A DNA stretch of 64,000 nt from Sulfurospirillum multivorans DSM 12446 (GTDB taxonomy: Bacteria; Campylobacterota; Campylobacteria; Campylobacterales; Sulfurospirillaceae), in contig NZ_CP007201.1 in NCBI RefSeq assembly GCF_000568815.1, positions 372,001-436,000 on the forward strand, given 5' to 3'. The position numbers were made by a program, and so were the translations under genes. Each line of letters begins with the position of its first letter. Within the stretch, counting starts at the first letter, position 1. Below are positions 1,288-64,000 of the stretch, piece by piece. Under the pieces are notes generated by a model that worked only from the letters and a program-made list of their open reading frames with translations, made no database searches and was not told the origin of the DNA.

Positions 1288-1300
1288 TTTACATGTAAGG

Positions 1301-1624
1301 CTATTTTCTGCCTCTGTTTTGCCTGTTTTCCTGCATATGTTTTAATTGACCTGTTTGAAACTCTTCTTTGGTCACTTTACCGTCTTTGTTGGCATCAAAA
1401 TAGGTAAAATCAGGTGAATTAGCAGCGTTTCGCATCGGCATTCCCGCTTTTGCATTCGCACTCATGCGTTCTACTTTAACAGTATCAAACTCCTCTTGGG
1501 TCAACATCCCATCTTTGTTGGTATCGTACGCCTCAAATCCGATGGGACCGCGCGTTGTGTCCACAGCATTTAAACTCAAACCGACCAGACTAACCAGTGC
1601 TAAGCACATGAAAGATTTTTTCAT
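1301..1624 (-). CDS. Periplasmic EF-hand protein
   Basis: A 107-residue protein with an N-terminal signal peptide (MKKSFMCLALVSLVGLSLNA) and two canonical EF-hand loops, DTNKDGMLTQEEF and DANKDGKVTKEEF, each with the Asp/Asn/Glu ligands of a 12-residue calcium loop. The C-terminus is basic (QNRQNRGRK). It is probably a secreted calcium-binding protein. Its start overlaps the stop of the upstream DUF4405 gene by 4 nt (1621-1624), so the two form an operon. Confidence 0.8.
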   Translation of the reverse strand: MKKSFMCLALVSLVGLSLNAVDTTRGPIGFEAYDTNKDGMLTQEEFDTVKVERMSANAKAGMPMRNAANSPDFTYFDANKDGKVTKEEFQTGQLKHMQENRQNRGRK

Positions 1625-2445
1625 TTTGACTCCTTTTGGGTAGATGTTTTAAGTAATTCTAAGAGTTCAATGGGCTTTACATGTAAAGCATCAGCGATCT
1701 CTTTGAGTGTTGAATCCTCAGTAGCATTAAAGCCTTTTTCTCGGATAAGTTCCAGGGCTTTTTCCAGTGCAAAAGTGTGCTGCATGCTTGCATTTTTGAG
1801 CGTTACTTTACCGTATCCTCCACCTTCGCTTAGCGTGGACATTTTGGGTTTAGCATTGATCATATCGAAAATTTGCGCGGGTGATTTGCCATTTTCTTGA
1901 GCAATCTGCGCAATCGTTTTGGTCAGATTGACACCCTTGAGCTTAGAGGCGTTTAATTGCGAAACGATGACAGAGACATTGCGTCCCGTTTTTTGGGAAA
2001 ACTCTTCGAGAGTTGAGAGCTCGGCATGACCGTAAGGTGCTTGGTCGACTTTTTCTTCCCACGAAGCTTTTACCTCCTCTTGAAAGTCCAAAAATTGTTC
2101 AAAAGGTGCCCAATAATAGAGTGTTCCTACGATAAAAAGTAGATTCAAACCAAGGGCGAATAAGAACTCTTTGGTGAAAAGTGAAAAGGATTTGGCTCTG
2201 TTTTTGAGGTAATTTAAAAGCGATCCCCAGTTGAGGTAGATATGAAAAAACATGCCCAGTAAAAAAAGTACCATAAAGGTTACATGTAAATGGGTGTATT
2301 GCGTTTTATCAAGCCCTAGAAGCTCCCAGTTCGTCCAGTTGGCAACCCTGCCTTTGGGCGATAAAAAAAGAATAATACCTGTGTAACTCATGATGAGAAA
2401 CGAAAAACTGATAGACAAAGAGATAAAACGTCGTAGCGAAGACAT
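1621..2445 (-). CDS. DUF4405-type membrane protein
   Basis: 274 residues. The N-terminal part has about four membrane helices with histidines (THLHVTFMVLFLLGMFFHIYLNW) in the arrangement of DUF4405/cytochrome b561-like domains, so heme binding is possible. The soluble C-terminal half has two similar helical segments (TIAQIAQENGKSPAQIFDMI; TLKEIADALHVKPIELLELL). It is first in an operon with the EF-hand gene. A more distant relative lies at 5917-6423. The gene carries two TTACATGTAA palindromes, both read as Leu-His-Val. Function unknown. Confidence 0.7.
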   Translation of the reverse strand: MSSLRRFISLSISFSFLIMSYTGIILFLSPKGRVANWTNWELLGLDKTQYTHLHVTFMVLFLLGMFFHIYLNWGSLLNYLKNRAKSFSLFTKEFLFALGLNLLFIVGTLYYWAPFEQFLDFQEEVKASWEEKVDQAPYGHAELSTLEEFSQKTGRNVSVIVSQLNASKLKGVNLTKTIAQIAQENGKSPAQIFDMINAKPKMSTLSEGGGYGKVTLKNASMQHTFALEKALELIREKGFNATEDSTLKEIADALHVKPIELLELLKTSTQKESK

Positions 2446-2464
2446 AGGAATTCCTTAATTTGCT

Positions 2465-2470
2465 TATAAT
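2465..2470. promoter_or_regulatory. Candidate -10 box in the divergent region before prs
   Basis: TATAAT at 2465-2470 is the best -10-like hexamer in the 136-bp gap between the divergent DUF4405 and prs genes. Nearer prs, GGGTAAAAT at about 2540 could serve as its own -10. A ribosome site (AAAGGA) precedes the prs ATG. No convincing -35 is seen, which is normal for Campylobacterota sigma-70 promoters. Confidence 0.3.
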
Positions 2471-2581
2471 GTGAATAAATACTTCTGTTATTATGGCACT
2501 TTAATGTTAAAAGAGTGTTAACGCTATCTTAAGTCCCTATTGGGTAAAATAGAGCACTTTTTGATGTAAAGGATATTTCAT

Positions 2582-5304: not shown

Positions 5305-5306
5305 AG

Positions 5307-5879
5307 ATGCGTTGCCATCTCTGCCTTGGGCTTAGCTGGCAACCGCTTTGTAAGAATTGTTTAGAAACCATTCTGGCTCCAACTCCCGCTTTTAGAATTT
5401 TGGAGAGTGGGCTTAAAGTCTACTCTTTTTACAGCTACAGTGACATAGCCCCACTGCTTCACACCAAACACACCTACATCGGCGCTAAAATCTTCGCTCA
5501 ATTAGGACATCACACTTTCTTTGAATTTTTAAAAACCTTTGAGTTGCCAAAAGGCATTTGCGCCATTCCTATCGACGATCATGTGAGAAACGGCTATTCG
5601 CACAGTGCGATTTTAGCCAAAGCGACCAAGCCTTTTTTAACGCCACTGTATGGAAGTTTAAGGGCGCAAAATCATGAGAGTTATTCAGGTAAAAGCAGAG
5701 CCTTTAGACAAGCCAATAAACGGGATTTCATCCTTACATGTAAAGATGAAATCGATGCTATTTTGATCGATGACATCGTTACCACGGGAAGTACTTTGGA
5801 AGAGGCGCATGAGACACTCAAAAAGCATGGTGTCAATGTTTTGTTTGCCCTAGTGTTGGCAGATGCCAAAGAGGGTTAA
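5307..5879 (+). CDS. comF: ComF family phosphoribosyltransferase-like protein
   Basis: 190 residues. An N-terminal four-cysteine zinc site (MRCHLC..LCKNC) precedes a phosphoribosyltransferase fold with the PRPP loop AILIDDIVTTGSTLEEA. Relatives (ComF/GntX) act in uptake of transforming DNA, with a helicase partner in Gram-positives; whether this copy does so is inference. It starts 2 nt after lepA. One TTACATGTAA palindrome is read here in the other permitted frame as Leu-Thr-Cys-Lys. Confidence 0.85.
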   Translation: MRCHLCLGLSWQPLCKNCLETILAPTPAFRILESGLKVYSFYSYSDIAPLLHTKHTYIGAKIFAQLGHHTFFEFLKTFELPKGICAIPIDDHVRNGYSHSAILAKATKPFLTPLYGSLRAQNHESYSGKSRAFRQANKRDFILTCKDEIDAILIDDIVTTGSTLEEAHETLKKHGVNVLFALVLADAKEG

Positions 5880-6439: not shown

Positions 6440-7287
6440 AGGGGTCAGGGCTAAACTTTTAACTTTTTAACATTCTGTGGTACAATTTTAGCAAAAAAAG
6501 AGGGTAAATATGCCACGAAGATTGCGCATCGAAAATGTGGGCTATCATCACGTTTACAACCGAGGTGTTGCCAAGGGGAAGGTTTTTGAAGATGAAAAGG
6601 ACAAGGCGAAGTTTATTGAACTGATGGCAAGTGCTGCTAGGGAGTACAAGTTTAACATTCATGCGTTTTGTTTGATGGACAACCACTATCACATTTTAGT
6701 GCAAAACACACGTGAAAATCTCTCTTCTGGGATGCGCCAGCTTAACGCACAGTATGCGAGTTACTTCAATAAACGCCATGATCGCGTAGGGCATTTATGG
6801 CAAGACCGCTTCAAATCATGGTACGTTCTAGATATAAAATATCTTTTTACCCTCTTTAAGTACATCGAAAACAACCCCGTAAAAGCAGGGATGAGCCAAA
6901 AAATAGGCGAATATATGTATTGTGCAACGTACAGTATTTTAAAAGATGCCGTGCCACCTTTTTTGCAAAATTCGTTTGTTTTGCGCGATTACAATACTAA
7001 AGAGTTATTGGATCTTTTAAGCATTTCTCTAAGCGTGGCAGAACGTTCAACTATAGATGCGTTTCATCAAACAAAATACAAACACGAAGAGGGACAAATT
7101 GCGCCTTTGCACAAAGAGATGCTTGAAAATTATTTCTTACATGTAAAGAGTAAACAAGAGCGAAACGAAGCAATCAAAAAAGCCTATGAAGATGGGTACA
7201 GCAAAAGTGAGGTTGCACGAAATTGCTCTCTAAGCGTTGCAGGAGTCAGTAAAATCCTCAAAAGTTAAAAATTTAGCCCTGACCCCT
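6440..7287. mobile_element. RAYT (IS200-like) element with 24-bp terminal inverted repeats
   Basis: The transposase gene at 6510-7268 is flanked by inverted repeats: the left arm at 6440-6463 begins AGGGGTCAGGGCTAAA and the right arm at 7264-7287 is its reverse complement with a single mismatch. The right arm contains the transposase stop codon. The right edge is about 60 bp from the gyrA start. The transposase carries one TTACATGTAA palindrome (7137), so this element appears to be long resident. Confidence 0.8.
6510..7268 (+). CDS. REP-associated tyrosine transposase (Y1 HUH type)
   Basis: 252 residues. The HUH motif is seen as FCLMDNHYHILVQ, and the catalytic Tyr candidate lies in FKYIENNPVKAG. 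This is the RAYT/IS200-like fold, which cuts single-stranded DNA at hairpin-bearing ends. The C-terminal 35 residues (NEAIKKAYEDGYSKSEVARNCSLSVAGVSKIL) form a helix-turn-helix extension. It starts at an ATG after AGAGGGTAA. The terminal inverted repeats fit a single-gene, still-complete element. Confidence 0.88.
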   Translation: MPRRLRIENVGYHHVYNRGVAKGKVFEDEKDKAKFIELMASAAREYKFNIHAFCLMDNHYHILVQNTRENLSSGMRQLNAQYASYFNKRHDRVGHLWQDRFKSWYVLDIKYLFTLFKYIENNPVKAGMSQKIGEYMYCATYSILKDAVPPFLQNSFVLRDYNTKELLDLLSISLSVAERSTIDAFHQTKYKHEEGQIAPLHKEMLENYFLHVKSKQERNEAIKKAYEDGYSKSEVARNCSLSVAGVSKILKS

Positions 7288-14580: not shown

Positions 14581-15534
14581 TTGGAAAGTCCAAGCACACT
14601 CTTTACATGTAAAGGATTTCCCATCAGTCAAATTATCTTTGGACCCATTACGTCTAGACGTTTTGGGCAATCCCTTGGCATAGACCTTAGTCCCTCTTCC
14701 AAACAGTGCAATTTTGACTGCCTTTACTGCGAACTTAAAGGGGCAAAAACAGTCGATAAAGTGAGCGATGCACCTTTGGTCAAAGAAGTCTTAAATGCGC
14801 TTAGTGAGGCATTGCTCAAACATCAAAACCTTGATGTCATTACGCTGACAGCCAATGGCGAACCGACACTTTATCCTGACCTTGATGCCTTGGTTGATGG
14901 TATCGTAAAGATCAAAAAAGAGACTAAACTGCTGATTCTTTCCAACGGATCAACAATTATGGATCTTTCCATTCAAAACATCCTCTCAAAACTAGACATT
15001 GTCAAACTCTCTTTAGATTGTGTGAGTCCACAATGCTTTAAAAAGCTTGATCGTGCGCATAAAGGTATCGAGATTAGCCAGATTATCGAAGGCATGAAAA
15101 GCTTTAGAACGCGTTATTTGGGTGAATTGGTCATCGAAATTTTAGTCGTTGAAGGGTTAAATGACACCGAAGAGGAGTTTCAAGCTCTGAGTGCAGTTTT
15201 GCATGACATCAAGCCCGATCGCATCGATGTTAGCACGATTGATCGCCCGCCTGCTTATGCGGTGAAAGGGGTGAGTATCGAGCGTTTAGTAGCGCTTTCA
15301 AGCCTTCTTGAAAGCTTACATGTAAACATTGCTTATAAGAAAAATTACATACCACAAAAGCGTCATTTTAGCCGTGAAGAGATACTCGAGCTTCTCAAGC
15401 GCAGACCGCAAAGTTTTGAAGATATCGCTCTGTGTTTTGATGATCAAAGTCTTGAAAATCTCCATCGTTTGGTCGAAGAAAAGCATTTACATGTAAAGAA
15501 TATTGCAGGGGTGAGTTTTTATAAAGTACTCTAG
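14581..15534 (+). CDS. Radical SAM protein (COG0731-like)
   Basis: About 317 residues with IIFGPITSRRFGQSLGIDLSPSSKQCNFDCLYCEL: the CxxxCxxC motif binds the [4Fe-4S] cluster that cleaves S-adenosylmethionine. The FGP.xSRR.GxSLGIDL lead-in is typical of the wyosine-synthase-like COG0731 group, whose bacterial substrate is unknown. The start is uncertain: a TTG at 14581 is used because no ATG precedes the conserved region. Three TTACATGTAA palindromes lie inside, one at the extreme N-terminus read as Phe-Thr-Cys-Lys. It follows hemE, as I recall for C. jejuni. Confidence 0.8.
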   Translation: MESPSTLFTCKGFPISQIIFGPITSRRFGQSLGIDLSPSSKQCNFDCLYCELKGAKTVDKVSDAPLVKEVLNALSEALLKHQNLDVITLTANGEPTLYPDLDALVDGIVKIKKETKLLILSNGSTIMDLSIQNILSKLDIVKLSLDCVSPQCFKKLDRAHKGIEISQIIEGMKSFRTRYLGELVIEILVVEGLNDTEEEFQALSAVLHDIKPDRIDVSTIDRPPAYAVKGVSIERLVALSSLLESLHVNIAYKKNYIPQKRHFSREEILELLKRRPQSFEDIALCFDDQSLENLHRLVEEKHLHVKNIAGVSFYKVL

Positions 15535-17655: not shown

Positions 17656-17690
17656 GTAAGGCTTCTTTTTTCAAAAAGCCTTACATGTAA
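17656..17690. terminator. Hairpin between TAXI receptor and TRAP permease genes
   Basis: GTAAGGCTT (17656-17664) and AAGCCTTAC (17676-17684) form a 9-bp stem. Its right arm merges with a TTACATGTAA palindrome at 17681-17690. In a minus-strand operon this could attenuate or process the message so that receptor exceeds permease, but that is inference. Confidence 0.4.
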
Positions 17691-18929: not shown

Positions 18930-19040
18930 CTCTCTTTTCTAATACAATCTAATAAAGTCTAAAAATTCCCTAAACATCGAGACTATGGCGATTTTGTTCG
19001 TCTATTGAAATCCAGTAAAAACCAATACCATCTACGACAT

Positions 19041-19060
19041 TAATGTACTTTTTAATGTAC
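19041..19060. repeat. 20-bp direct repeat near the left island end
   Basis: TAATGTACTTTTTAATGTAC at 19041-19060 recurs exactly at 38596-38615, about 70 bp inside the right end. Internally it is a tandem TAATGTAC with a TTTT spacer. The position and symmetry fit arm-type binding sites for the integrase or excisionase. A further AGTACATTAAG lies at about 19094. Confidence 0.75.
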
Positions 19061-19117
19061 TTCGGATAAGATTTATAAAAAGCTTCCTAAAAAAGTACAT
19101 TAAGAGATGAGAAAACC

Positions 19118-27916: not shown

Positions 27917-28408
27917 TTATTTTGGGTCGCTTTTTGGACACAGTTCTGGATAGAAGATGCAAAAGCCATAAACAAGGCGTCTAATCTCTTCTTTTGAGAT
28001 GTAAAATTCTTTTTTGAGCCACTGGTATGTGACGTACAAAATGATTTTTTTGAGCAGTCGTTTCTCAAGCTCTCTTGGTAATTCATTGATGACATTGGAT
28101 TCAATGGTACGCAGTGCCTTTTGGATGCGGCGTATCTCTTTGCGGTGTATTGCTTTAGTGCTAAGAACAATGGCCCTTTTGGTTGTTGAACTAGCATTAA
28201 AATAACATTTTTTGATAATGTAAAAATCAATGTAGTAAATGCTTATTTTGTTTGAAATTGGGAACAAGCTACTTTGATTTTCAAGACGTTTGATCAGTTC
28301 TTTTTTGATAATACCTCGGACAATTTTTTCAATACGATTATTTTTGCTGCCATTATCTTCTGCATTTTCAAAATCAAATGGGACGATCTCTTCTTGTGTT
28401 ATTTCCAT
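27917..28408 (-). CDS. Island hypothetical protein, basic
   Basis: 163 residues, ATG 28408 after AAGGAAAAACC. Rich in Lys/Arg/Ile, with helical stretches (RIEKIVRGIIKKELIKRLENQ; AIHRKEIRRIQKALRTIESNVINELPRELEKRLLKKI), suggesting a nucleic-acid-binding or structural role. No known domain. It is followed by 27466-27873 in the same direction and preceded by three imperfect DNA repeats. Confidence 0.5.
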   Translation of the reverse strand: MEITQEEIVPFDFENAEDNGSKNNRIEKIVRGIIKKELIKRLENQSSLFPISNKISIYYIDFYIIKKCYFNASSTTKRAIVLSTKAIHRKEIRRIQKALRTIESNVINELPRELEKRLLKKIILYVTYQWLKKEFYISKEEIRRLVYGFCIFYPELCPKSDPK

Positions 28409-28429
28409 GGTTTTTCCTTGTGGGTCGTA

Positions 28430-28576
28430 GCCCTTTAACGTAATACCCCTAAACTAGTGATATTTGCGCTCTTTATGTTGTCGCCCTTTAACGTAATACT
28501 CGCTAACCAGTCGCCTAAAAAGCAGGTCGTAACCTTCTTTATATTATCGTTCTACGATAATCAGTAAACTAGTGAC
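28430..28576. repeat. Three imperfect ~55-60-bp tandem repeats
   Basis: GCCCTTTAACGTAATAC occurs exactly at 28430-28446 and 28483-28499, each followed by a form of ACTAGT (CCCTAAACTAGTGAT; TCGCTAACCAGTCGC). A third diverged unit ends with AGTAAACTAGTGACC at about 28563-28576 after an ACGATAAT tract. The spacing is about 53-64 bp. The position, upstream of a minus-strand island gene, fits iterons, an oriT-like site or a structured 5' leader; I cannot choose between these. Confidence 0.6.
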
Positions 28577-28604
28577 CTTATTTTTAGGTACTGTTTGGCA
28601 GAAA

Positions 28605-36790: not shown

Positions 36791-36957
36791 GTAAAAACTC
36801 CTTTTTGAGACTATTCGGTTTGAATAGAGCTCTTCATTTGATTTAGATAAATGAAGTTAAGAAGTTTTTGGAAGTTTGTTTTTGAAAGATAAAAAGCATT
36901 CTACTACTTTGGTTAAAAAAATCAAGAGATTTTGAGAAAAATAGCGTAATTTTATGA

Positions 36958-37076
36958 AACGAATGCCATTTAATACCTTTTAATTGGTACGTGATTTTAT
37001 AATATAGTGTCAGAATTTGACACAGTATCGGTTATGTGTCATTATTCAAAGATATGCAAATGCCATTTAATACTTA
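36958..37076. repeat. GGTATTAAATGGCATTCG repeats, right inverted group
   Basis: AAACGAATGCCATTTAATAC at 36958 is the reverse complement of the left-group unit, and AATGCCATTTAATACTT at about 37059 is a second, shorter inverted copy. Between them are a TATAAT and a GTGTCA dyad. With the left group they frame the small-membrane-protein operon. Confidence 0.7.
36998..37023 (+). promoter_or_regulatory. -10 box with GTGTCA dyad
   Basis: TATAAT (36998-37003) is followed directly by GTGTCA GAATT TGACAC (37007-37023), a perfect 6-bp dyad, with another TGTGTCA about 13 nt further on. It looks like a repressor-controlled promoter. No convincing plus-strand gene follows before 37349; a 61-residue frame beginning inside the dyad has no ribosome site. 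A short RNA is possible. Confidence 0.5.
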
Positions 37077-37167
37077 TGAAATATCCTTGTGCTACTTATC
37101 TAGAGATGCTTCTATTAAAAATTCTATCACAATGTTTCGTACAGAGTTTTTATTTTAACAAAATTAA

Positions 37168-37196
37168 ACTTTTACAAAAAAATATTTTGTAAAAGT
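37168..37196. terminator. A/T-rich 12-bp hairpin
   Basis: ACTTTTACAAAA (37168-37179) and TTTTGTAAAAGT (37185-37196) form a perfect stem with a 5-nt loop. It could end a short transcript starting at the GTGTCA promoter, giving an RNA of roughly 190 nt. Confidence 0.4.
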
Positions 37197-37267
37197 TCTA
37201 AAGTTGTATAAGTAATTTATATCCATATTTTAGGAATATTTATATAGTAATTGAGGGGATTGTATAT

Positions 37268-37325
37268 TTGACAATTCGGCAGATATTGCCTATAATTATA
37301 TTATAAAAAACGGCAGATATTGCCG
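37268..37325 (+). promoter_or_regulatory. Consensus promoter with two operators for the toxin-antitoxin pair
   Basis: TTGACA (37268-37273) and TATAAT (37291-37296) are spaced by 17 bp. CGGCAGATATTGCC occurs inside the spacer (37277-37290) and again just past the -10 (37311-37325, there with full dyad CGGCA-GATAT-TGCCG). Two operators covering a promoter fit autorepression by the HTH protein encoded 24 bp downstream. Confidence 0.85.
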
Positions 37326-37348
37326 AAAAGTAAGAAAAGGAGTTTTTG

Positions 37349-37834
37349 ATGACACAGACACAAATGGTAAAGCTTCTTGGTGTCTCTGATAGAACTTTAA
37401 GAAGCTGGAAAACAAATCGAAATAGCCTTTATACATTACTTGATCGATTGGATTTTAATCAATCAGAAGAGTTACTTTCTCAAAAAGACAATATGCATGT
37501 TAAAAAACTTTTAGAAAATCAAGAGTATTTTCAAGAGTATAGATCGTTTGAAAAAGAGCTCTTTAAGTTTTTGGTTTCAAAATTTGACACGAATATACTC
37601 AAAAAAATGGCAAAAGACACTGCACTTTCAAAAGAAGCACGAGCAAGAAGTGCATACTTGTATACTTTTTTAACAAAAAAACCTCTCAAACTAAGCTTTT
37701 CATTGAATAAAAAAGTAGGTCTATACCATGGAAGAAAGCAAGAATCTGGAGATGGCTTGGCTGATTATTATGGACTTTTAAGCGGTGTGGATGCCAATAG
37801 ATTTAATCAATACAAAACAAAAGGGAACAATTGA
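37349..37834 (+). CDS. HTH antitoxin-like regulator
   Basis: 161 residues from ATG 37349 after AAGGAGTTTTTG. The N-terminal helix-turn-helix (TQTQMVKLLGVSDRTLRSWKTNRNSLYTLLDRLD) resembles that of the candidate repressor at 22036. The C-terminal helical domain is basic and could bind the toxin. The stop overlaps the start of the nucleotidyltransferase gene (TGATG). The twin CGGCA operators just upstream are its likely target. Confidence 0.7.
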   Translation: MTQTQMVKLLGVSDRTLRSWKTNRNSLYTLLDRLDFNQSEELLSQKDNMHVKKLLENQEYFQEYRSFEKELFKFLVSKFDTNILKKMAKDTALSKEARARSAYLYTFLTKKPLKLSFSLNKKVGLYHGRKQESGDGLADYYGLLSGVDANRFNQYKTKGNN

Positions 37835-38400
37835 TGAATACTTCACTCGAAGATGCCGTAAGAGAAATGATGCAAAAAATTAGTAAGAATATACGGGGAG
37901 CAAGTAAAAAAATGCCCGTCAATGTGTATATAACGGGAGGAATTGCGATTCATTTTCATACTGCCGCTAGAGTGTCAAAAGATTTGGATGCAATTATTGA
38001 TCAAAACATCAATATTCCCAGTAAATTAACGGTACTTTGGCAAAATGAGAACGGTGAATTTGAAGAACTGGCCTATGATTATAACTACAGCCCAACGCTT
38101 GGACTTATGCATGAAGATTATGATAGAAGGGCCATATTCAAGTTTAGTATCGATGATAAGCTTAATGTTTATATTTTAGATCCAGTAGATTTAATTATTT
38201 CAAAATTATCACGATTTGGAGAGCAAGACCAAGAAGATATCCAAAGAATTATACAAAACGACCTTGTTAATAAAAGTCAACTTGAAGAATTAGCTAATGA
38301 CGCTATCACAATAGCAAGTGCAGGTAGACCCGAAACCTTTAAACTGCATCTTGCGTTGACACTTGAAATGTTTGATGAAATACCCAGGGATGTTCAGTAA
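37834..38400 (+). CDS. Nucleotidyltransferase-like toxin (DUF6036/AbiEii-like)
   Basis: 188 residues. PVNVYITGGIAIHFHTAARVSKDLDAIID is the nucleotidyltransferase start: the GG(I/S)A turn then a D-x-D catalytic pair (KDLDAII). VYILDPVDLIISKLSRFGEQDQEDIQRII is the helical part typical of DUF6036/AbiEii-like proteins, which in related toxin-antitoxin or phage-abortive systems modify tRNA or protein. Translationally coupled to the HTH gene. Last island gene before attR. Confidence 0.75.
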   Translation: MNTSLEDAVREMMQKISKNIRGASKKMPVNVYITGGIAIHFHTAARVSKDLDAIIDQNINIPSKLTVLWQNENGEFEELAYDYNYSPTLGLMHEDYDRRAIFKFSIDDKLNVYILDPVDLIISKLSRFGEQDQEDIQRIIQNDLVNKSQLEELANDAITIASAGRPETFKLHLALTLEMFDEIPRDVQ

Positions 38401-38595
38401 ATCACTTTATATCGCTCAATATAGTCTCTCTCCTTGCACAATCTTAAACGAAGTGCTTAGGCTTTTAAAAGAATTTTTTGTCTAGAACGGCTCTTCGTCT
38501 GACACTTAGTATTGAACATTTGTTACTTGGAAGAGTTGAATATGGTATAATCAAAACAAGACTATAAGATTTACATGATCATACTAGAAAATTAT

Positions 38596-38615
38596 TAATG
38601 TACTTTTTAATGTAC
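38596..38615. repeat. 20-bp direct repeat near the right island end
   Basis: An exact copy of TAATGTACTTTTTAATGTAC found at 19041-19060. Here it lies 50 bp inside attR. The 38401-38665 gap also holds a TATAAT at 38546-38551 but no gene that I can support. Confidence 0.75.
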
Positions 38616-38765: not shown

Positions 38766-39884
38766 GTGAAATTGATTCATTTTTCGGACACACATTTAGG
38801 CTTTAACGATTTAGACACTGTAAATGCGCTAGGCATCAACCAACGAGAGGCTGATTTTTACGATGCTTTCTCACAGGTCATCGAGCAAATCAAAATCCTA
38901 AAACCTGACTACATTATCCACACGGGTGATCTCTTTCACCGCCCATCCCCTAGTAACCGAGCCATCACCTTTGCCCTTGAGCAATTCAAACTCATCGAAG
39001 CACTGAATATCCCGTTTATCATGATAGCGGGCAATCACTCCACGCCTCGAACCAACCTAAGCTCTCCAATTTTAAAAATATTTGAAAACTTCAAAAACGT
39101 TTATGTCTCATACAATCAAGAGTACAAAAAAATAGAGTTTGACGACGTGGTTTTTCACACCTTACCGCATATGCACGATGAGAGCAAAGCACTTTCCCAA
39201 ATCGAACTGTGCGAAGCAAATCTCGATGCAACCAAACGCAACATTATGATGCTTCACTGCTCTGTAGGTGCGCACTATCTCATGGCTGAGTTTGGTGAAT
39301 GGGTTTATCCGCATGATAAAGAGAGCCTTTTTTCTAAGATGGATTATGTCGCCCTTGGGCATTGGCATGGATTTGGAAAAGTCGGCAAACACGAAAATGT
39401 TTACTATGCAGGTTCCACCGAACGCACCAGTTTAAATGACAAACGCAACTCTAAAGGCTTTGCGCTTGTCACACTGGATGAGTCTTTACATGTAAACTAC
39501 CATGAGATAACTATACGCCCCATCAAAACCTACGAGATTGATTGTGAAGACTACGAGCAATCAGTTGAGGCTTTACATGTAAACGATATAAAAGACGCCC
39601 TCGTCGAAGTGAAACTGACCCATCTCACCCCTTTGCAGTCCATCGACATCCAAACCCGTGACATCAAAAATCTTTTTGGCGAAGCTTTACATGTAAGCAT
39701 CAAACGAGAGTTCAAACAAACCAACGGTGAAGCCACACTAAATGACATCGAAGCACTCTCTTTGGAAACGTATTTTTTAGAACACATCAAAGAAGAGAGT
39801 CAGCCTGAAGAGTTTGAGCGGCTCAAAGGCAAAATCCAAGGCTTGTTTAGTGCCTACGAAGAGGTGAGCGATGATACTCTCTAA
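38766..39884 (+). CDS. sbcD: SbcD/Mre11-type DNA nuclease subunit
   Basis: 372 residues, GTG start. Phosphoesterase motifs run in order: FSDTHLG, HTGDLFHR, AGNHSTPR, MLHCSVG and ALGHWHGFG, which hold the two-metal site. With SbcC it opens hairpins and trims protein-blocked double-strand ends. It overlaps sbcC by 14 nt. Three TTACATGTAA palindromes, all read as Leu-His-Val, lie in the less conserved C-terminal third (39486, 39573, 39687). Confidence 0.93.
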   Translation: MKLIHFSDTHLGFNDLDTVNALGINQREADFYDAFSQVIEQIKILKPDYIIHTGDLFHRPSPSNRAITFALEQFKLIEALNIPFIMIAGNHSTPRTNLSSPILKIFENFKNVYVSYNQEYKKIEFDDVVFHTLPHMHDESKALSQIELCEANLDATKRNIMMLHCSVGAHYLMAEFGEWVYPHDKESLFSKMDYVALGHWHGFGKVGKHENVYYAGSTERTSLNDKRNSKGFALVTLDESLHVNYHEITIRPIKTYEIDCEDYEQSVEALHVNDIKDALVEVKLTHLTPLQSIDIQTRDIKNLFGEALHVSIKREFKQTNGEATLNDIEALSLETYFLEHIKEESQPEEFERLKGKIQGLFSAYEEVSDDTL

Positions 39885-42240
39885 GCTTCACCTTGAAAAC
39901 TTCAAACGCTACACCTCTTTTGATATCGAGTTTGGCGAAGGGCTTATCGGCATCATCGGTAAAAATGGCAGTGGCAAATCGACTCTTTTTGAAGCGATAC
40001 TTTTCGCGCTTTATGGCGAGCTTCGAAACAAAAAATTTAAAGAAGTCATACGAAATGCCAGTGCAAGTGATAAAGATGCCGTTTTAGTTGAGCTTGATTT
40101 TGAGTTTGAAGGCATGGCGTACAAAGTCATGCGTGAGTTTCGAGGCAAAGCCCTCAGTGCCAATGCCAAGCTTTATAAAAACGGCGAGCTTACCACCAGT
40201 GGCGCGCGAGAAGTCACCGTGGCTATCACGAAGCTAACGAAGATGAGTAAAGAGGCATTTTTGCATACACTTTTTGCTTCTCAAAAGGAACTGACAAGTC
40301 TTAGCACACTTAAAAATGAAGATCGAAAAAAGATGATACGAAAACTTCTTGGGCTTGAGAAGATTGATTTTGTGGAAAATGAACTCATTGAAAAAAGCAG
40401 GGAACTCAAACGTGACATCGCAGCAAGTGCAGAATTTCTTTTAGGCGAAGAAGAGCTCAAAAGTAAAACAGTGTTGATAAAAGAGACAACCGCCATAAAA
40501 CAAGCGTTTGAAAAAGAGGTCAAAACCAAATCCACGGAACTAGAAACCACCAAAAAACAAGAGTTACATGTAAAGCAAGAACTCGAACTTTTTGTCAAAA
40601 CGAAAGAGCAGAAACAAAAGTTCATCGGCGAACTTTCCCTCATCAAAAACGACATTAACGCAAACATAGCTACTCAAACCAAACTTACCACAGAGCTTAA
40701 AGCCTTAGAAACGAAAGTCAAAGAACTTAAAAGTTTAAGCACCGTTAAAAAAGAGTACGAATCTTTGTCAACAAAGCTAAAAGAGCAAGAAACTCTTAAA
40801 AATATTCAGATAAAAAAAGAGGGTTTGGAAAAAGAGCAAACCCAGTTGCGTGCCCAGTACACCAAAGCCAAAGCAGACATCGCAACTTTGGAAGAGCAAA
40901 CCAAACCCTATGAAACACTCTTGGGGCAAAAAAAAGAAAATGAAGCTTTACATGTAAAGATAAAAACCGAACTTGCGAACAAGCAAACAGAGCAAAAACA
41001 ACTCCAAAATGAATTCTCAGCTGAACAGCGAGTCGTCTTAGACACACAACAAAAAATTGCCAAGATACAAAGCTTAGGTCGAGAATCAAACTGCCCTACC
41101 TGTACCAGACAACTACTTGATGAATACGACAATGTCATCGCCTCCCTAAACGACATCGTGCAAAAAACGCAAAGTCAAAAGATAGACAAAACCAAAGCAA
41201 AACTTGAACTCTTAAACAAACAGATAGGAGAGCTTGAACTTCAAAAAGAGCAAACCCAAAAAGCCTTACATGTAAATGAGACAGCGCTAAGTTTGATAGC
41301 AAGCAAGCAAAAAGATTTGGCAAGTGCCAAAGAGCATTTTACGAAGGTCAGTGAACAAGGCAAACGCAACAAAGAAGAACTTGACAAACTCGCACAACAC
41401 GCTTACGATGAAGCCTTACATGTAAGCCTACAAAAAAGCTTTTTGGAGTTAAAACCAAAGTACGAAGCCGTCCTAAGCCTTGAAACTGAACTCAAACGAG
41501 AGCAGGGCGTGAGAGAGGATTTGGCACTTACATGTAAGAGTGCAGAAGCTTTACATGTAAAAGAAAAAGAGAAAGAAATGGAAGTTACCAAAACACTGTA
41601 CGATGAGCCAAAACACACCGCAAAAAAAAGCGAATACGACGAACTTCAAAAGCAAAAAGAGAAACAATACAGCGTTATTTCGGAGATAAAAGAAAAAATA
41701 GCCAAGAATGAGGGCGAGATAAAAACCTTGCAAAACGCTCTTGAAAATAACGACATACAACTTAAAAAAGTACAGAGTAAAAAAGACGATTTGCAAGACT
41801 ATGAGAAAATCAAACTAAGCCTTAGTGAGTTTAAAACAAAACTCAACTCAAAAATAGCCCCACGCATCTCCCAAATCGCTTCCCAAATGTACGCCACCAT
41901 CACCAAAGGCAAATACCAATACATCGAAGTGAACAACGACTTTGACTTTTTCATCTACGACGAGGGCAAATGCTACCCCATAGAACGCTTCAGCGGCGGC
42001 GAAATAGACCTTGCCAACTTAGTGCTTCGCATCGCCATCTCCAAAACACTGAGTGAACTGAACGGTGCAAGCAGTGTGGGATTTTTAGCCTTCGATGAAG
42101 TCTTCGGAAGCCAAGATGAAAACAGAAGAATGGAAATCTTAGAAGCGTTTCATACCATAAAAGAACAGTACAGACAGATATTTTTGATAAGTCACGAGAT
42201 GGAGATAAAAGAGATGTTTGAGAGAGTTGTGGAGTTGTAA
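39871..42240 (+). CDS. sbcC: SbcC/Rad50-type SMC ATPase
   Basis: 789 residues. Walker A GKNGSGKST near residue 30, a long coiled coil broken at about residue 407 by the zinc hook NCPTC, the ABC signature FSGGE near 707 and Walker B FLAFDEVFG near 738. Six TTACATGTAA palindromes (40564, 40948, 41266, 41416, 41528, 41551) lie only in the coiled coil, five read as Leu-His-Val and one as Leu-Thr-Cys-Lys, and none in the ATPase lobes. The chain is shorter than E. coli SbcC (~1050). Confidence 0.93.
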   Translation: MILSKLHLENFKRYTSFDIEFGEGLIGIIGKNGSGKSTLFEAILFALYGELRNKKFKEVIRNASASDKDAVLVELDFEFEGMAYKVMREFRGKALSANAKLYKNGELTTSGAREVTVAITKLTKMSKEAFLHTLFASQKELTSLSTLKNEDRKKMIRKLLGLEKIDFVENELIEKSRELKRDIAASAEFLLGEEELKSKTVLIKETTAIKQAFEKEVKTKSTELETTKKQELHVKQELELFVKTKEQKQKFIGELSLIKNDINANIATQTKLTTELKALETKVKELKSLSTVKKEYESLSTKLKEQETLKNIQIKKEGLEKEQTQLRAQYTKAKADIATLEEQTKPYETLLGQKKENEALHVKIKTELANKQTEQKQLQNEFSAEQRVVLDTQQKIAKIQSLGRESNCPTCTRQLLDEYDNVIASLNDIVQKTQSQKIDKTKAKLELLNKQIGELELQKEQTQKALHVNETALSLIASKQKDLASAKEHFTKVSEQGKRNKEELDKLAQHAYDEALHVSLQKSFLELKPKYEAVLSLETELKREQGVREDLALTCKSAEALHVKEKEKEMEVTKTLYDEPKHTAKKSEYDELQKQKEKQYSVISEIKEKIAKNEGEIKTLQNALENNDIQLKKVQSKKDDLQDYEKIKLSLSEFKTKLNSKIAPRISQIASQMYATITKGKYQYIEVNNDFDFFIYDEGKCYPIERFSGGEIDLANLVLRIAISKTLSELNGASSVGFLAFDEVFGSQDENRRMEILEAFHTIKEQYRQIFLISHEMEIKEMFERVVEL

Positions 42241-54075: not shown

Positions 54076-54101
54076 AAAGAGGAGGGGGTTAACTCCTCTT
54101 T
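54076..54101. terminator. Hairpin between PfpI and VOC genes
   Basis: AAAGAGGAG (54076-54084) and CTCCTCTTT (54093-54101) form a 9-bp stem with an 8-nt loop, followed on the plus strand by a TTACATGTAA palindrome. It may end transcription of the pfpI-like gene before the VOC gene. Confidence 0.45.
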
Positions 54102-54114
54102 TACATGTAACGTT

Positions 54115-54754: not shown

Positions 54755-56644
54755 TTATTTGTAAGCCTTCTCATAAACCAAAGGATAGTTTAAAAGTGGC
54801 AGATATTCGCCATCATACGACACATCGTTTTCATCGATCAATGTTTCTACGATGCCCGCACCTTCCGTCAATGTTGCCTCTTTTTCGATGGGACGATCGG
54901 TGATGATCTCACCTATGTGATACGCTGTTCCATCAAGGTGTGTGTACGTCTCTTTGCCAACTCTAAAGTAACGATACGTAAAAGGTGTTTGAGCAAACAC
55001 ATCTTTTCCCAACGTGAAGCGTTGTGTCGCGACGACTTTTCGATACCCAATAGCCGCATTTAAAGCCTCTTTTTCAGTGGGATAAAGCAGTCTTGGGTGA
55101 ATAAAACCCTCGTTTGTCAGATACGCTTTTGCTTCCACAAATTCAGTCATCAGCTTTACATGTAAACGTTGTTGCTCTACTAACGTGCTAGGATTTGACA
55201 CATCCAAAGGACGCCAGTTATCGCTGTAACCGCGCTCTTTGGTAATGCTTTCCTTCAAAAAAGCTTCCATACTCTCAGGCATAACGCCGTACAGATTGGC
55301 TCCGACAACATGCTTTAAAAAATATCCAAATTCGCCTTGATGTGTTTTGCGGTTGAGCGGATCACCTCTACCTGAAGTCGCTTTGCCTTCTTTTAAAGTG
55401 TAAGCGAGATAATCCATCTCACCCCAGCCCAGCTTTTCGGGAAATTTACGAGGAAATGCCCACGTCGAATCAATCGTGTTGCTGCTCCCTGAGGTAAACG
55501 AGGAGGGCTCAAAACCGTAGTTATCGCTATGGCATCCCACACATTGCATTAACTCTTCGCCTTTTTGAGCCCTTAAATGACCCTTGGCATCTTCGATGAA
55601 ACCAGCGAGTATCCAGCCTGCACCGTTGTTGATCCACCCTTGTTTTTCGTTGAGATAGAGGGGTGCATTTTCCTCTTTTTCCGCCGCTTCCCCTGGGTAA
55701 TACATACGCGTTTTAACCATATAACGTATCTCTTTCACCCGTGTGGCACGTGTGCCATTTTTGCGAAGATCGACATAATGCAAAGGATGAGCAAACTCGG
55801 TGTAAAGTGGGTAAAGTCCACGGTGAACCTCTACCTCATTCGCCTTTCCGTAGTAGGTTTTAGGATCATTCGGCTCAAGTCTGTCGGTAATGGCGCGTTC
55901 TAAAAGATCAAGGTTTTGAGCATAAATGAGCTCACTCCACGCCCCTTTTTCATCTTGCATAAAGGCTTTAGGCAGGCGAATGTAAATGCCAGAGACACTG
56001 CCGCTCATCGGTGTGAAAATACCATAAGGCATAAAGTTAATCGCACGCCAGCCTGTCATATCTGCAAACAAAGCGCGTGTTTTAGCTTTGGTTCGCACAA
56101 AACCATCCTCTTTGGCTGGAAGATCGGAGGGGCTTAGGTCAGGAAATAGCCGCCAAGATGACGCATCGTCTCCATTTTCCCACCCCACTTTTCCACCACG
56201 CTTGGCATAGGCTTCGCTCCAATTGTCTTCTTCTAAATAGCCAAGCATTTTAGTTTCATCAAAACGGTTAGGGCTTTGTTGATAGGCTGTTTCTAACTTT
56301 TCAGGAAAGAGAGTGTTTTCCCAAGGATTGATGCTGGGTGATTTGGTTTGCTGGGTTGCAGGGGCAAAACTGTAGGTGGTTTGCAGATTACCCGTAATGC
56401 TTGAAAGTCCTGCTTGGGGGTTGTTGTTGCCAAGACGTGCGCGAGCAGGGGCATTGGTGTGGCAGAACATACAGGCGTTTTGAGTTCCACCACTCGTTTC
56501 GATGTAGCACTGCGCAGGGATGTTCGCATACGGGTTTGCAAAGATTGTTCGACTGACAAATTCACCTTTCAATGAGCCGCCAAAGCTCACGACGGAGCTA
56601 AGGCAGAGTGTGAAAAGGAGGCGATTAAAGCCCTGGGATGCCAT
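54755..56644 (-). CDS. Periplasmic diheme cytochrome c-like protein
   Basis: 629 residues with a signal peptide (RLLFTLCLSSVVSFGGSLKG) and two CxxCH heme motifs: NACMFCHTNAP near residue 60 and QCVGCHSDNYG near residue 372. No full family match is recognised; the rest is a large soluble periplasmic domain. It overlaps the PhoX gene by 20 nt and follows it in the same operon, so the two may work together, perhaps in an oxidoreductase-phosphatase pathway. One palindrome is read as Leu-His-Val. Confidence 0.7.
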   Translation of the reverse strand: MASQGFNRLLFTLCLSSVVSFGGSLKGEFVSRTIFANPYANIPAQCYIETSGGTQNACMFCHTNAPARARLGNNNPQAGLSSITGNLQTTYSFAPATQQTKSPSINPWENTLFPEKLETAYQQSPNRFDETKMLGYLEEDNWSEAYAKRGGKVGWENGDDASSWRLFPDLSPSDLPAKEDGFVRTKAKTRALFADMTGWRAINFMPYGIFTPMSGSVSGIYIRLPKAFMQDEKGAWSELIYAQNLDLLERAITDRLEPNDPKTYYGKANEVEVHRGLYPLYTEFAHPLHYVDLRKNGTRATRVKEIRYMVKTRMYYPGEAAEKEENAPLYLNEKQGWINNGAGWILAGFIEDAKGHLRAQKGEELMQCVGCHSDNYGFEPSSFTSGSSNTIDSTWAFPRKFPEKLGWGEMDYLAYTLKEGKATSGRGDPLNRKTHQGEFGYFLKHVVGANLYGVMPESMEAFLKESITKERGYSDNWRPLDVSNPSTLVEQQRLHVKLMTEFVEAKAYLTNEGFIHPRLLYPTEKEALNAAIGYRKVVATQRFTLGKDVFAQTPFTYRYFRVGKETYTHLDGTAYHIGEIITDRPIEKEATLTEGAGIVETLIDENDVSYDGEYLPLLNYPLVYEKAYK

Positions 56645-59496: not shown

Positions 59497-59540
59497 GGTA
59501 TGTTTTTTGCTTGTACCTTTACATGTAAAAGGAGTTCGCC

Positions 59541-61863: not shown

Positions 61864-61881
61864 CATCGTTACATGTAAAGA

Positions 61882-62232: not shown

Positions 62233-62340
62233 TATGCACCTCAGTTTTGATTTATGGGGTTATGGTAGCAAAGTGGGAAGTAAGAGGTTGAAAATATTTC
62301 AATTTGAAAGAAAAGGAAGAGACAATCTCTTCCTTTGATG

Positions 62341-62745
62341 TTAAAAAATTGGAACGTTATATTTTTTCATACACGCTGTTAATTTTTCTAAGTATTCAGG
62401 ATTATTTTCACCAGTCGCTGGTGGAACACGTAAATTGCAACATAAAACGGATAGTGTCGCATTGTCTTTTGTTGTTGCGGTTAATGATTCAGGTACATAA
62501 GCTAGCAATCCTGAGCCATTGTAGAGTTTATCGATCTCATCATGGGTTAATGAATAAATAATGCCACTCGCTTTACTGTTTTCATCTCTTAACAACGTTG
62601 CCAACTTCCCGATTCTGAGTTTATAACCTTTTACTGTGGCAATTCTGGGATTTCGAGGTGTTACCTCTTTGCTAGTGAGGATTTCTGGATCCATATATAA
62701 CCCATAAAAAAAGACTTCGTGTAGTCTATGTTCTGAATTGTCCAT
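62341..62745 (-). CDS. Gamma-glutamylcyclotransferase-like (AIG2) protein
   Basis: 134 residues. HEVFFYGLYMDPEIL matches the AIG2/GGCT start (FxYGxLMxPExL), and ASGIIYSLTHDEIDKLYNGSGL the later conserved turn. The usual catalytic Glu lies near this turn but I cannot place it with certainty. Possible roles include glutathione-derived or furamycin-like turnover; the substrate is undefined. Confidence 0.75.
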   Translation of the reverse strand: MDNSEHRLHEVFFYGLYMDPEILTSKEVTPRNPRIATVKGYKLRIGKLATLLRDENSKASGIIYSLTHDEIDKLYNGSGLLAYVPESLTATTKDNATLSVLCCNLRVPPATGENNPEYLEKLTACMKKYNVPIF

Positions 62746-62796
62746 GTGTAAATTCCTTTATAAATAGTTTTTTTCAGATTACATTTTGTAGTTACT

Positions 62797-63219
62797 TTAC
62801 AAAAACCTCTCCACAAAACGATCCAAATCTTCATCGCTCATCGCGCCACTTACGCGCTCAACTTCCACGCCATCTTTAAAAACGATCAGCGTAGGAATCG
62901 AGCGAATTTTAAAGCGTGAAGCCAAAAATTGTTCGGCTTCGGTATCGACTTTGGCAAATAAAACGCGCAACGGATAGGCTCGGGCGGCTTGTTGGAAGGT
63001 GGGGGCGAAGGCTTTGCATGGGGCGCACCACGGTGCCCAGAAGTCGACGATGACGGGCACATCGGTATTACCTAGAACGGCTTCAAGAATGTCGCTGGTC
63101 AGAGCGATGGGATGTGGGTCGAGCAGGGAAGTTTGGCACTTCCCGCAATTTGCTTTTTTGTAGACTTCGAGTTTTGGGACATTATTGGTAGCCAAACAGT
63201 TGGGACAGATGACTTTCAT
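62797..63219 (-). CDS. trxC: Thioredoxin 2 (TrxC-like)
   Basis: 140 residues. An N-terminal zinc site made of CPNC (5-8) and CGKC (25-28) precedes a thioredoxin fold with active site WCAPC (Cys65, Cys68) and cis-Pro in IPTLIVF. It reduces disulfides in oxidative stress. It starts 3 nt after the next gene's stop, so it is downstream of the DUF4392 gene in one operon. Confidence 0.92.
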   Translation of the reverse strand: MKVICPNCLATNNVPKLEVYKKANCGKCQTSLLDPHPIALTSDILEAVLGNTDVPVIVDFWAPWCAPCKAFAPTFQQAARAYPLRVLFAKVDTEAEQFLASRFKIRSIPTLIVFKDGVEVERVSGAMSDEDLDRFVERFL

Positions 63220-63222
63220 GAT

Positions 63223-64000
63223 TTATCCTTGTGTTGCGTATGCTTTTAAGGCGCTGAGTATTTCAGGTTCTATCGACCACTCTTTGCCATCGACTGACAT
63301 CACGGATTCTCGTTTGATGCCGTCTACTGAGCCTTTGGAGACGATAAATTCAAGGTATTTTTCAACCTCTTCAAAGCTGGGTAAAACGTTTACATGTAAA
63401 ACTTTTTCAAGCTCTGCGATAAAACCGTATCCGCCCCAGTTGGAAACCGATGCGATCATCGGGTAGTCGCAGGGAATGACGCAGTAGTCGTAGAAAAATT
63501 CTTTATCTTTCAAAACTTCTTCAAAGCTTCCCATGCCCACTTCATTGCCACCATCGCCGATGCCAAAGCTTGGAGCGGTTTTGCTTCCTAGTTTGAAAAG
63601 CTCATCGACAGGAGCGGTGAACTCTTTGATGTTCACACCACGCGAGTTGAGGTAAAGCCCTTCATGGTTTTGTCCGCAACGCTCGATGGAGAGATGTGCG
63701 ATGGGTTTGTAGGTGTCTAAAAGCATTTCGTATTCTTGGTGGCTTAGCCCTTCAAGCGGGATGTAGAGGGTTTTGATATCAAAAAAATAGTCCTCGCAAA
63801 AATGGTCGGTCACGATAACAGGCGTGTATCCTAGTTTTTCAAACGCTTTGGCTAAAAAGTAAGCGCCTAAAGGACCATCGGTTTCTGCAAAACCTGCCAC
63901 GTAAAAACCGGTGTAGATGAAAACAACGCCTTTATCTAGTTTCAGGAAAGCGTGAACAGCCTTTTTAGTGTGTTCATGGGGAAAATGAGCCTGAATTTTG
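63223..64000 (-). CDS. DUF4392 / D-glutamate cyclase-like protein (5' end outside window)
   Basis: The frame stays open to the last base of the window, so the true start lies beyond. The visible part has VVFIYTGFYVAGFAETDGPLGAYFLAKAFEKLGYTPVIVTD and SFGIGDGGNEVGMGSFEEVL, the glycine-rich nucleotide-type motifs of DUF4392 proteins, which are related to D-glutamate cyclase. A palindrome is read as Leu-His-Val. It leads an operon with the thioredoxin gene. Confidence 0.75.
   Translation of the reverse strand, partial: KIQAHFPHEHTKKAVHAFLKLDKGVVFIYTGFYVAGFAETDGPLGAYFLAKAFEKLGYTPVIVTDHFCEDYFFDIKTLYIPLEGLSHQEYEMLLDTYKPIAHLSIERCGQNHEGLYLNSRGVNIKEFTAPVDELFKLGSKTAPSFGIGDGGNEVGMGSFEEVLKDKEFFYDYCVIPCDYPMIASVSNWGGYGFIAELEKVLHVNVLPSFEEVEKYLEFIVSKGSVDGIKRESVMSVDGKEWSIEPEILSALKAYATQG

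What the first reader, a model, noticed from the sequence alone, without database searches (positions are those of the whole stretch)
1289..63399. A highly iterated palindrome, TTACATGTAA, is scattered through the resident genome
I count 31 perfect copies of a 10-bp palindrome in 64 kb. With about 60% A+T and independent bases, well under one is expected. Copies occur on both coding strands and between genes, so it is neither a protein motif nor a codon effect. Known analogues are HIP1 of cyanobacteria and the DNA-uptake sequences of Pasteurellaceae and Neisseria. I know of no published description for this sequence. Possible roles are uptake specificity, a methylation or repair landmark, or a nucleoid-protein site.
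Basis: partly seen in the sequence, partly recalled or inferred. Interest (0 to 1): 0.85.

Follow-up and report, generated by a model that had tools for sequence, protein, structure and literature searches.

The report
Genome-wide repeated DNA palindrome, possible tag
A ten-letter DNA palindrome is stamped about once every two thousand letters across the genomes of a group of sulfur bacteria and kept almost unchanged by evolution; it may be a "self" tag used when the cells take up DNA, though its reader protein is not yet known.

Summary
Confirmed. The window holds 31 TTACATGTAA; its 3.18-Mb genome holds 1484, against 2 for the reversed control. All 24 genus genomes examined are enriched (21 have 411-1496 copies). 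Sister genera carry dialects on the core TACATGTA (CTACATGTAG, or mixed ends); part of a second family has it; the other families of the order sampled do not. The signal is very sharp: 217 perfect and only 52 one-mismatch copies in 464 kb. Against a relative 93% identical, 61 of 61 alignable copies are unchanged, with 0 synonymous changes in 132 codons where about 25 are expected. Nested species G009 and G017 lost most copies. New here: AA/TT steps in the flanks are phased with the helix (peaks about 7, 17 and 28 bp from the core, coding and intergenic). Copies favour gene ends and intergenic hairpins, and none is in the 19.6-kb integrative element of the window. Best reading: a palindromic DNA-uptake signal working like Haemophilus/Neisseria uptake sequences (about 0.5); rivals are a HIP1-like methylation landmark and a DNA-wrapping site. 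A solitary adenine methyltransferase tracks the motif in the genus but is neither necessary nor sufficient across genera. Uptake was not measured and no receptor was found.

The parts
1289..1298 (.). TTACATGTAA copy 1, intergenic
1677..1686 (.). TTACATGTAA copy 2, in ORF
2280..2289 (.). TTACATGTAA copy 3, in ORF
5734..5743 (.). TTACATGTAA copy 4, in ORF
7137..7146 (.). TTACATGTAA copy 5, in ORF
14603..14612 (.). TTACATGTAA copy 6, in ORF
15316..15325 (.). TTACATGTAA copy 7, in ORF
15487..15496 (.). TTACATGTAA copy 8, in ORF
17681..17690 (.). TTACATGTAA copy 9, intergenic
19039..38615 (.). Motif-free integrative element (22-bp direct repeats at both ends, integrase, TraG-like, DNA methylase); the negative-control stretch
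   Evidence: 0 of 31 copies
39486..39495 (.). TTACATGTAA copy 10, in ORF
39573..39582 (.). TTACATGTAA copy 11, in ORF
39687..39696 (.). TTACATGTAA copy 12, in ORF
40564..40573 (.). TTACATGTAA copy 13, in ORF
40948..40957 (.). TTACATGTAA copy 14, in ORF
41266..41275 (.). TTACATGTAA copy 15, in ORF
41416..41425 (.). TTACATGTAA copy 16, in ORF
41528..41537 (.). TTACATGTAA copy 17, in ORF; first of a 23-bp-spaced pair
41551..41560 (.). TTACATGTAA copy 18, in ORF; second of that pair
47482..47491 (.). TTACATGTAA copy 19, in ORF
47560..47569 (.). TTACATGTAA copy 20, in ORF
47764..47773 (.). TTACATGTAA copy 21, in ORF
47933..47942 (.). TTACATGTAA copy 22, counted as coding by the ORF heuristic (end of a short ORF)
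48789..48798 (.). TTACATGTAA copy 23, intergenic
49780..49789 (.). TTACATGTAA copy 24, in ORF
50665..50674 (.). TTACATGTAA copy 25, in ORF
53659..53668 (.). TTACATGTAA copy 26, in ORF
54101..54110 (.). TTACATGTAA copy 27, intergenic
55156..55165 (.). TTACATGTAA copy 28, in ORF
59519..59528 (.). TTACATGTAA copy 29, intergenic
61869..61878 (.). TTACATGTAA copy 30, intergenic between convergent ORFs
63390..63399 (.). TTACATGTAA copy 31, in ORF

Best explanation
The palindrome is the core of a DNA-uptake recognition element. A competence receptor (not identified) binds the symmetric core TTACATGTAA, probably as a dimer, and bends flanking DNA whose A/T steps are phased with the helix. Shown here: the iteration, its sharpness, strong constraint also at synonymous positions, the phased flanks, dialects between genera, losses in nested species, absence from the integrative element of the window, and presence of the ComEC channel.
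For: 411 to 1496 copies in 21 of 24 genus genomes, 238, 168 and 49 in the others. Dialects on one core: CTACATGTAG 117-220 copies in five g2 genomes that have only 9-23 TTACATGTAA. Dispensable: G009 has 49 and G017 238 copies although their PyrG is 96% identical to that of G000; 0 of 10 and 0 of 3 aligned G000 sites survive there (recount). Flank phasing: AA/TT amplitude 0.077 against a mean of 0.008 and a maximum of 0.0245 in 1000 random sets, in coding and intergenic sites alike, same phase in four of six other sets of genomes tested; the Haemophilus uptake consensus likewise has two A/T tracts about a helical turn apart beside its core (PMC1939737, passages). Intergenic density 5 times the coding density; convergent > tandem > divergent, the reverse of what a promoter regulator would give; 62 of 143 coding copies in the last 30% of genes (p 0.0007), as uptake sequences in Pasteurellaceae favour gene termini (PMC2346458, abstract); copies at the tip or in the stem of chosen intergenic hairpins. 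0 of 31 in the 19.6-kb integrative element (9.1 expected at genome density, p 1e-4). ComEC in 54 of 57 genomes tested. A phylum precedent for selective uptake: Campylobacter jejuni requires DNA methylated at RAATTY (PMC8468864, which prints RATTY, passages; PMC10046745 passages).
Against: No uptake measurement exists. ComEC is present in motif-poor genomes too (G009, G017, G059), so this competence gene does not track the motif. The minor-pilin family searched as a possible receptor (PF12019) was found in 0 of 50 genomes. The known uptake sequences considered here are not palindromes. The core is sharper than theirs: over-representation falls 280-fold from 0 to 1 mismatch, against 92- and 82-fold reported for Haemophilus and gonococcal sequences (PMC1939737). 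Phased flanks fit a DNA-wrapping protein equally well. Some viral contigs, picked because they hold a close pair, carry up to 7 copies in 12 kb (hosts unknown), so foreign DNA is not always free of it.
Confidence: 0.5

Rival explanations
1. HIP1-like methylation landmark: a solitary adenine methyltransferase modifies the CATG/ACATGT core and a reader of the methylated palindrome (repair, recombination, or methyl-dependent uptake as in C. jejuni) keeps it.
For: G000 has a 327-aa D12-class methyltransferase; no restriction gene was recognised among the nine neighbouring ORFs scanned. In the genus it is present in 17 of 24 genomes; among the 19 that are at least 90% complete, motif density is higher with it (14) than without (5) (p 0.002, not corrected for kinship). 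In f17, 6 of 9 genomes with 19 or more copies have it against 4 of 36 others (Fisher p 0.0016). Four of the five complete genus genomes without it are decayed (one-mismatch excess per perfect copy 1.1-3.4 in G009, G017, G021, G022). The family is also in f14 genomes, which I take for Helicobacter-like; M.HpyI of H. pylori targets CATG and is universal there (PMC10423294 passages); that the two are one family is inferred. HIP1 was linked to orphan methyltransferases (PMC4390886, start of abstract and passages).
Against: Neither necessary nor sufficient: absent from the clade G013+G018 (934 and 840 copies, ratio 0.29 and 0.16) and from G110 (567), G143 (340), G306 (225 of the C..G dialect) and G224 (202 of the C..G dialect); present in G059 and in other families without the motif. 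G010 and G014 have it and are still blurred (ratio 1.5 and 0.7). No association in family f1 outside the genus (p 0.78). CATG outside the motif is not enriched (0.70 of expectation in G000). No methylation data.
Confidence: 0.2
2. Chromosome-architecture site: an abundant DNA-wrapping protein or topoisomerase is placed by the palindrome, the phased A/T flanks giving the bend.
For: Helical phasing of AA/TT over about 30 bp of flank; the weaker flank of a copy is still above random; pairs spaced 18-23 bp, 9 against 0.5 expected, and a spacing peak at 19-22 bp (43 of 99 close spacings) in loci fetched by a pair pattern; extreme conservation; weak trend of lower density away from coordinate 1 (rho -0.44, p 0.053).
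Against: Near-complete loss in G009 and strong loss in G017 close to rich relatives, a patchy second family and end dialects are odd for a housekeeping function. Two of the close pairs were folded and are hairpins. The two flanks of a copy are weakly anti-correlated (r -0.17).
Confidence: 0.2
3. Transcription-regulator operator or terminator element only.
For: Four single-copy and two paired intergenic examples, chosen by eye, fold at -15.8 to -22.8 kcal/mol, z -4.1 to -7.0.
Against: Most sampled copies are inside genes (143 of 217) and divergent intergenic regions have the lowest density.
Confidence: 0.04

Closest known systems
HIP1, GCGATCGC, of cyanobacteria
   Same: Perfect palindrome at high frequency; alternative palindromes in some relatives; orphan methyltransferases in carriers (PMC4390886, start of abstract and passages).
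   Different: Different sequence and phylum; helically phased flanks (not examined for HIP1 here); the methyltransferase link fails in several lineages.
USS of Pasteurellaceae (AAGTGCGGT plus A/T tracts)
   Same: Copy density of the same order (Haemophilus figure recalled), phased A/T tracts beside the core (PMC1939737 passages), bias to gene ends (PMC2346458 abstract).
   Different: USS is asymmetric with both tracts on one side; here the core is symmetric and the phasing, averaged over copies, is on either side. Uptake untested.
DUS and its dialects in Neisseriaceae
   Same: Relatives differ by single bases on a common core; copies serve in hairpins (comparison recalled).
   Different: DUS is not palindromic; its receptor ComP was not searched for.
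CtsM / methylated RAATTY of Campylobacter jejuni
   Same: Same phylum; palindromic site; adenine methyltransferase; uptake discrimination (PMC8468864 passages; PMC8627207 passages).
   Different: RAATTY is very common (28,482 sites in one C. coli genome), not a sharply iterated 10-mer; homology of the Sulfurospirillum enzyme to CtsM was not tested.

Membership tests
Highly iterated palindrome (HIP-like) | Perfect palindrome far above Markov expectation genome-wide | tested here: met
   1484 copies, reversed control 2; 464-kb sample 217 against 0.66 expected
HIP1 proper | Sequence GCGATCGC in cyanobacteria | tested here: not met
   Different sequence; the dense named carriers are Campylobacterota
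HIP1 proper | Methyltransferase for the core in genomes rich in the palindrome | tested here: inconclusive
   Candidate in 17 of 24 genus genomes; absent from G013, G018, G110, G143, G224, G306; specificity unknown
DNA uptake sequence (DUS/USS) | Preferential uptake of DNA carrying it | not testable with these tools
   Needs an experiment
DNA uptake sequence (DUS/USS) | Carriers have a competence DNA channel | tested here: met
   ComEC in 54 of 57, but also in motif-poor genomes
DNA uptake sequence (DUS/USS) | Receptor pilin (ComP in Neisseria) | not tested
   ComP family not searched; the GspH-type family PF12019 found in 0 of 50
DNA uptake sequence (DUS/USS) | Dialects between relatives | tested here: met
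   TTACATGTAA, CTACATGTAG and mixed ends
USS | A/T tracts in phase with the helix beside the core | tested here: met
   flanks of both sides pooled, the two flanks of a copy weakly anti-correlated
DUS/USS | Asymmetric core | tested here: not met
   Perfect palindrome; so I do not file it as a DUS or USS member, only as working like one
Chi (RecBCD/AddAB) | Polar, non-palindromic site | tested here: not met
   A palindrome has no polarity

The most novel reading that the evidence does not exclude
A palindromic DNA-uptake element with helically phased flanks and genus dialects, used by Sulfurospirillaceae and some Sulfurimonas-like bacteria and read as a bent complex on a symmetric core: an independently evolved kind of self-DNA recognition and the first iterated uptake sequence in Campylobacterota.
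Probability: 0.42. Interest if true: 0.9.

Novelty: new variant of a known kind. Interest (0 to 1): 0.8.

Why it matters
Few iterated genome signatures are understood; the significance of HIP1, described in 1995, was still called little known in 2015 (PMC4390886, passage). Here is another family of iterated palindromes, in cultured species with complete genomes, with dialects, natural losses inside one genus and a structural signature in the flanks. If it is an uptake tag it would explain species-selective gene exchange in environmental Campylobacterota and could help to transform organohalide respirers.

Tried and rejected
Codon or peptide effect: rejected; copies are 5 times denser between genes, and coding copies use two main frames (99 as LHV, 39 as TC; 5 in the frame that ends in a stop). 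Spread as part of a longer copied element: rejected; beyond the core and a weak flank consensus the surroundings differ from copy to copy. Biased composition: rejected by Markov models and the reversed control. CATG-wide enrichment: rejected, 0.70 of expectation outside the motif in G000. The methyltransferase as sole cause: looked good in the genus, then failed in G013+G018 and in sister genera. ComEC loss as cause of motif loss: rejected. PF01555 methyltransferases: none in G000. PF12019 minor pilins: 0 of 50. TATCATGATA of G059 as a dialect: doubtful, it shows no phased flanks. Solved relatives of the methyltransferase by sequence: none convincing, best E 0.2. A first pyrG tree mixed strands and was discarded, redone. 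Viral contigs with motif pairs: 47 stretches, 26 of which hold only the pair; a few hold 5-7 copies; hosts not determined. Corrections made on checking: one search counted one G000 site twice (two fetched stretches overlap by 4 kb) and the reverse count included overlapping G006 stretches; both were recounted and the recounts are used here. One search also holds that 4-kb overlap; the headline phasing test does not.
Full report
OBSERVATION. TTACATGTAA occurs 31 times in the window; shuffles give 0.07 on average, and Markov models of order 1-4 give 0.09-0.26. The window is C1:372001-436000 of a single-contig genome, G000, of 3,175,729 bases with 1484 copies; the same letters read backwards occur twice.

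DISTRIBUTION. All 24 genus genomes examined are enriched: 21 have 411-1496 copies, G017 238, G022 168, G009 49; controls 0-10. Of 398 genomes of the order, enrichment is confined to family f1 and part of f17; in the other families counts are 0-11 and controls 0-9. f17 probably is Sulfurimonadaceae, inferred from Sulfurimonas hits. So I saw no other dense carrier, but the list is incomplete.

DIALECTS. The shared part is TACATGTA. In g2 the ends are often C..G: CTACATGTAG 202, 220, 186, 142 and 117 copies in G224, G278, G312, G329 and G340, against 9-23 TTACATGTAA. In the genus g1 CTACATGTAG occurs 0-7 times in each of 24 genomes. G306 (g3) has 225 against 22. G266 (122/265), G145 (41/446), G123 (40/107), G357 (62/97), G373 (36/87), G194 (62/96) and G339 (70/77) are mixed. 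Some are weak in both (G295 18/12, G346 17/6, G289 15/29), and G059 carries another palindrome, TATCATGATA (166 copies; 39 in G318, at most 15 elsewhere among 45 genomes).

SHARPNESS AND CONSTRAINT. In 464 kb of G000 there are 217 perfect copies and 52 one-mismatch copies, where chance alone would give 20 of the latter. With a base-composition model the drop in over-representation from 0 to 1 mismatch is 280-fold, against 92 and 82 for Haemophilus and gonococcal uptake sequences (PMC1939737, passages). Between G000 and G006 (about 93% identical) 61 of 61 alignable copies are intact, 33 expected from flank identity; 48 of 109 copies had no alignable partner in the DNA fetched. In the other direction 60 of 63 are intact, with 118 of 181 not alignable. 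In 132 in-motif codons there are 0 synonymous and 0 amino-acid changes; the synonymous rates for the same codons elsewhere (7-26%) predict about 25 (the sum is mine). In a 36-kb region with 17 sites, at about 80% regional identity, 6 of 6 alignable sites are intact in each of G002, G003 and G016, with flanks only 64-69% identical and 0.2-0.4 expected; G013 keeps 5 of 7, G001 8 of 10, G004 6 of 7. So sites sit in fast-changing surroundings and yet hardly change.

LOSS. G009 and G017 branch among rich species (PyrG 96% identical to G000; the tree resolves their exact place weakly). Of the 17 sites, 10 align in G009 and 0 survive; 3 align in G017 and 0 survive; G010, G014 and G022 keep 0 of 2 each, G021 2 of 5. 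The one-mismatch excess over the reversed control per perfect copy is 0.12-0.25 in most rich genomes, 0.29 in G013, but 3.4 in G009, 1.3 in G017, 1.1 in G021 and 1.4 in G022; G010 (1.5), G014 (0.7), G019 (0.46) and G023 (0.42) are also raised (my arithmetic). The system is therefore dispensable.

ANATOMY. The flanks prefer T, then C/G, next to the core. AA/TT steps peak about 7, 17 and 28 bp outside the core (left and right flanks pooled, since a palindrome has no direction). In G000 alone (428 flanks) the amplitude at 10.5 bp is 0.077 against mean 0.008 and maximum 0.0245 in 1000 random sets; best periods 11-11.75; coding 0.078, intergenic 0.079; in-frame coding controls reach at most 0.029 in 500; a codon-context control gives 0.010, and non-motif ACATGT and CATG sites 0.017 (104 flanks) and 0.004. 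Left and right means are equal (1.85 and 1.83 against 0.56 at random), the weaker flank of a copy is still above random, the spread of scores is that of random flanks (2.01 against 1.99), and the two flanks of a copy are weakly anti-correlated (r -0.17, p 0.013): on balance phasing on both sides with some compensation, but copies with one strong flank are not excluded. TACATGTA sites of g2, G010, G194 and f17 show the same phase (6, 1, 14 and 10 of 300 random sets reach them); G110 has 14 of 300 but another phase (9.1); G266, with 24 flanks, and ATCATGAT of G059 are not significant.

PLACEMENT. Copies are 1.7/kb between genes against 0.34/kb within (my division); convergent 2.62, tandem 1.71, divergent 0.97 per kb; spacings of 18-23 bp are in excess, 9 against 0.5. 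Six intergenic examples chosen by eye fold as strong hairpins with the core at the tip or in the stem. Coding copies favour the last 30% of genes, 62 of 143, p 0.0007; the excess in the last half is not significant (83 of 143, p 0.065). Genes were picked by an ORF heuristic.

FOREIGN DNA. None of 31 copies is in 19039-38615, bounded by a 22-bp direct repeat, beside tRNA-Asn 18855-18929, with integrase, TraG-like, transposase and C5-methylase genes and 34.4% G+C against 41.3%; 9.1 copies would be expected at genome density. The first 22.6 kb of plasmid pSDCE1 have 3 copies, about a third of chromosomal density. Against a simple rule, some viral contigs fetched because they hold a close pair carry 5-7 copies (L330, L331, L344, L345, L356); I did not determine their hosts.

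CANDIDATE FACTORS. A D12-class adenine methyltransferase (G000 C1:2827666-2828649, minus strand) lies among metabolic genes; a T5orf172-domain gene stands 2.3 kb away. It tracks the motif in the genus and f17 but not in the rest of f1, and a clade without it (G013, G018; G018 only 86% complete) keeps 934 and 840 copies. As 'present' I counted near full-length matches far stronger than the weaker D12 relatives (E about 1e-60 or worse), and G012 from two partial matches. ComEC is in 54 of 57 genomes, motif-rich or poor. PF12019 pilins are in 0 of 50.

INTERPRETATION. Sharpness, constraint and dialects call for a specific reader. Dispensability, patchiness, gene-end and hairpin placement and the phased A/T flanks together resemble uptake sequences more than a housekeeping binding site. 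Campylobacter jejuni already shows methylation-selective uptake in this phylum (PMC8468864, PMC10046745, PMC8627207; passages). I put uptake at 0.5, methylation landmark 0.2, architectural site 0.2; the recounts did not change these odds. It works like an uptake sequence but is not filed as DUS or USS, since the core is palindromic and uptake was not measured.

LITERATURE. Ten searches of an open-licence library showed me no description; subscription papers were not searched. Of the papers cited I saw passages (PMC4390886, PMC1939737, PMC10423294, PMC8468864, PMC8627207, PMC10046745) or the abstract (PMC2346458); none was read whole.

Noticed in passing
window 19039-38615: A 19.6-kb integrative element with 22-bp perfect direct repeats at both ends, beside tRNA-Asn, carrying integrase, TraG-like protein, C5 DNA methylase, a GHKL-type ATPase gene and a Mutator-family IS.
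   Followed up: partly
window 22832-24034 and 44028-45230: Two identical copies (1203 bp, 100%) of a Mutator-family transposase gene, one inside the element and one outside.
   Followed up: partly
L016:4586-14140: A CRISPR-like array with 147 copies of a repeat unit, the first two 66 bp apart, in the same genome.
   Followed up: no
G059 (L039-L043): A different iterated palindrome, TATCATGATA (166 copies in the genome), with no phased flanks at ATCATGAT sites.
   Followed up: partly
G010 (L221, L278, L311-L314): Besides TTACATGTAA, half-altered forms TGACATGTAA (9) and CGACATGTAA (6) are enriched: perhaps an asymmetric dialect.
   Followed up: no
L318:1692-2732: Plasmid pSDCE1 of S. diekertiae carries a relative (47.5% identical) of the chromosomal methyltransferase.
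   Followed up: no
L345, L330, L331, L344, L356: Viral contigs (IMG/VR) with 5-7 copies of TTACATGTAA in 4-15 kb; they may be phages of motif-bearing hosts.
   Followed up: no
L251:362 against the window genome: One G006 site differs from G000 at 6 of 10 bases at once, suggesting gain or loss by local replacement and not by single mutations.
   Followed up: no
G000, 20 sampled stretches (L006-L025): Motif density tends to fall with distance from coordinate 1 (rho -0.44, p 0.053).
   Followed up: no
L268:4685-5332 (minus): A T5orf172/MUG113-domain gene 2.3 kb from the solitary methyltransferase; such domains are, from memory, related to GIY-YIG nucleases.
   Followed up: no
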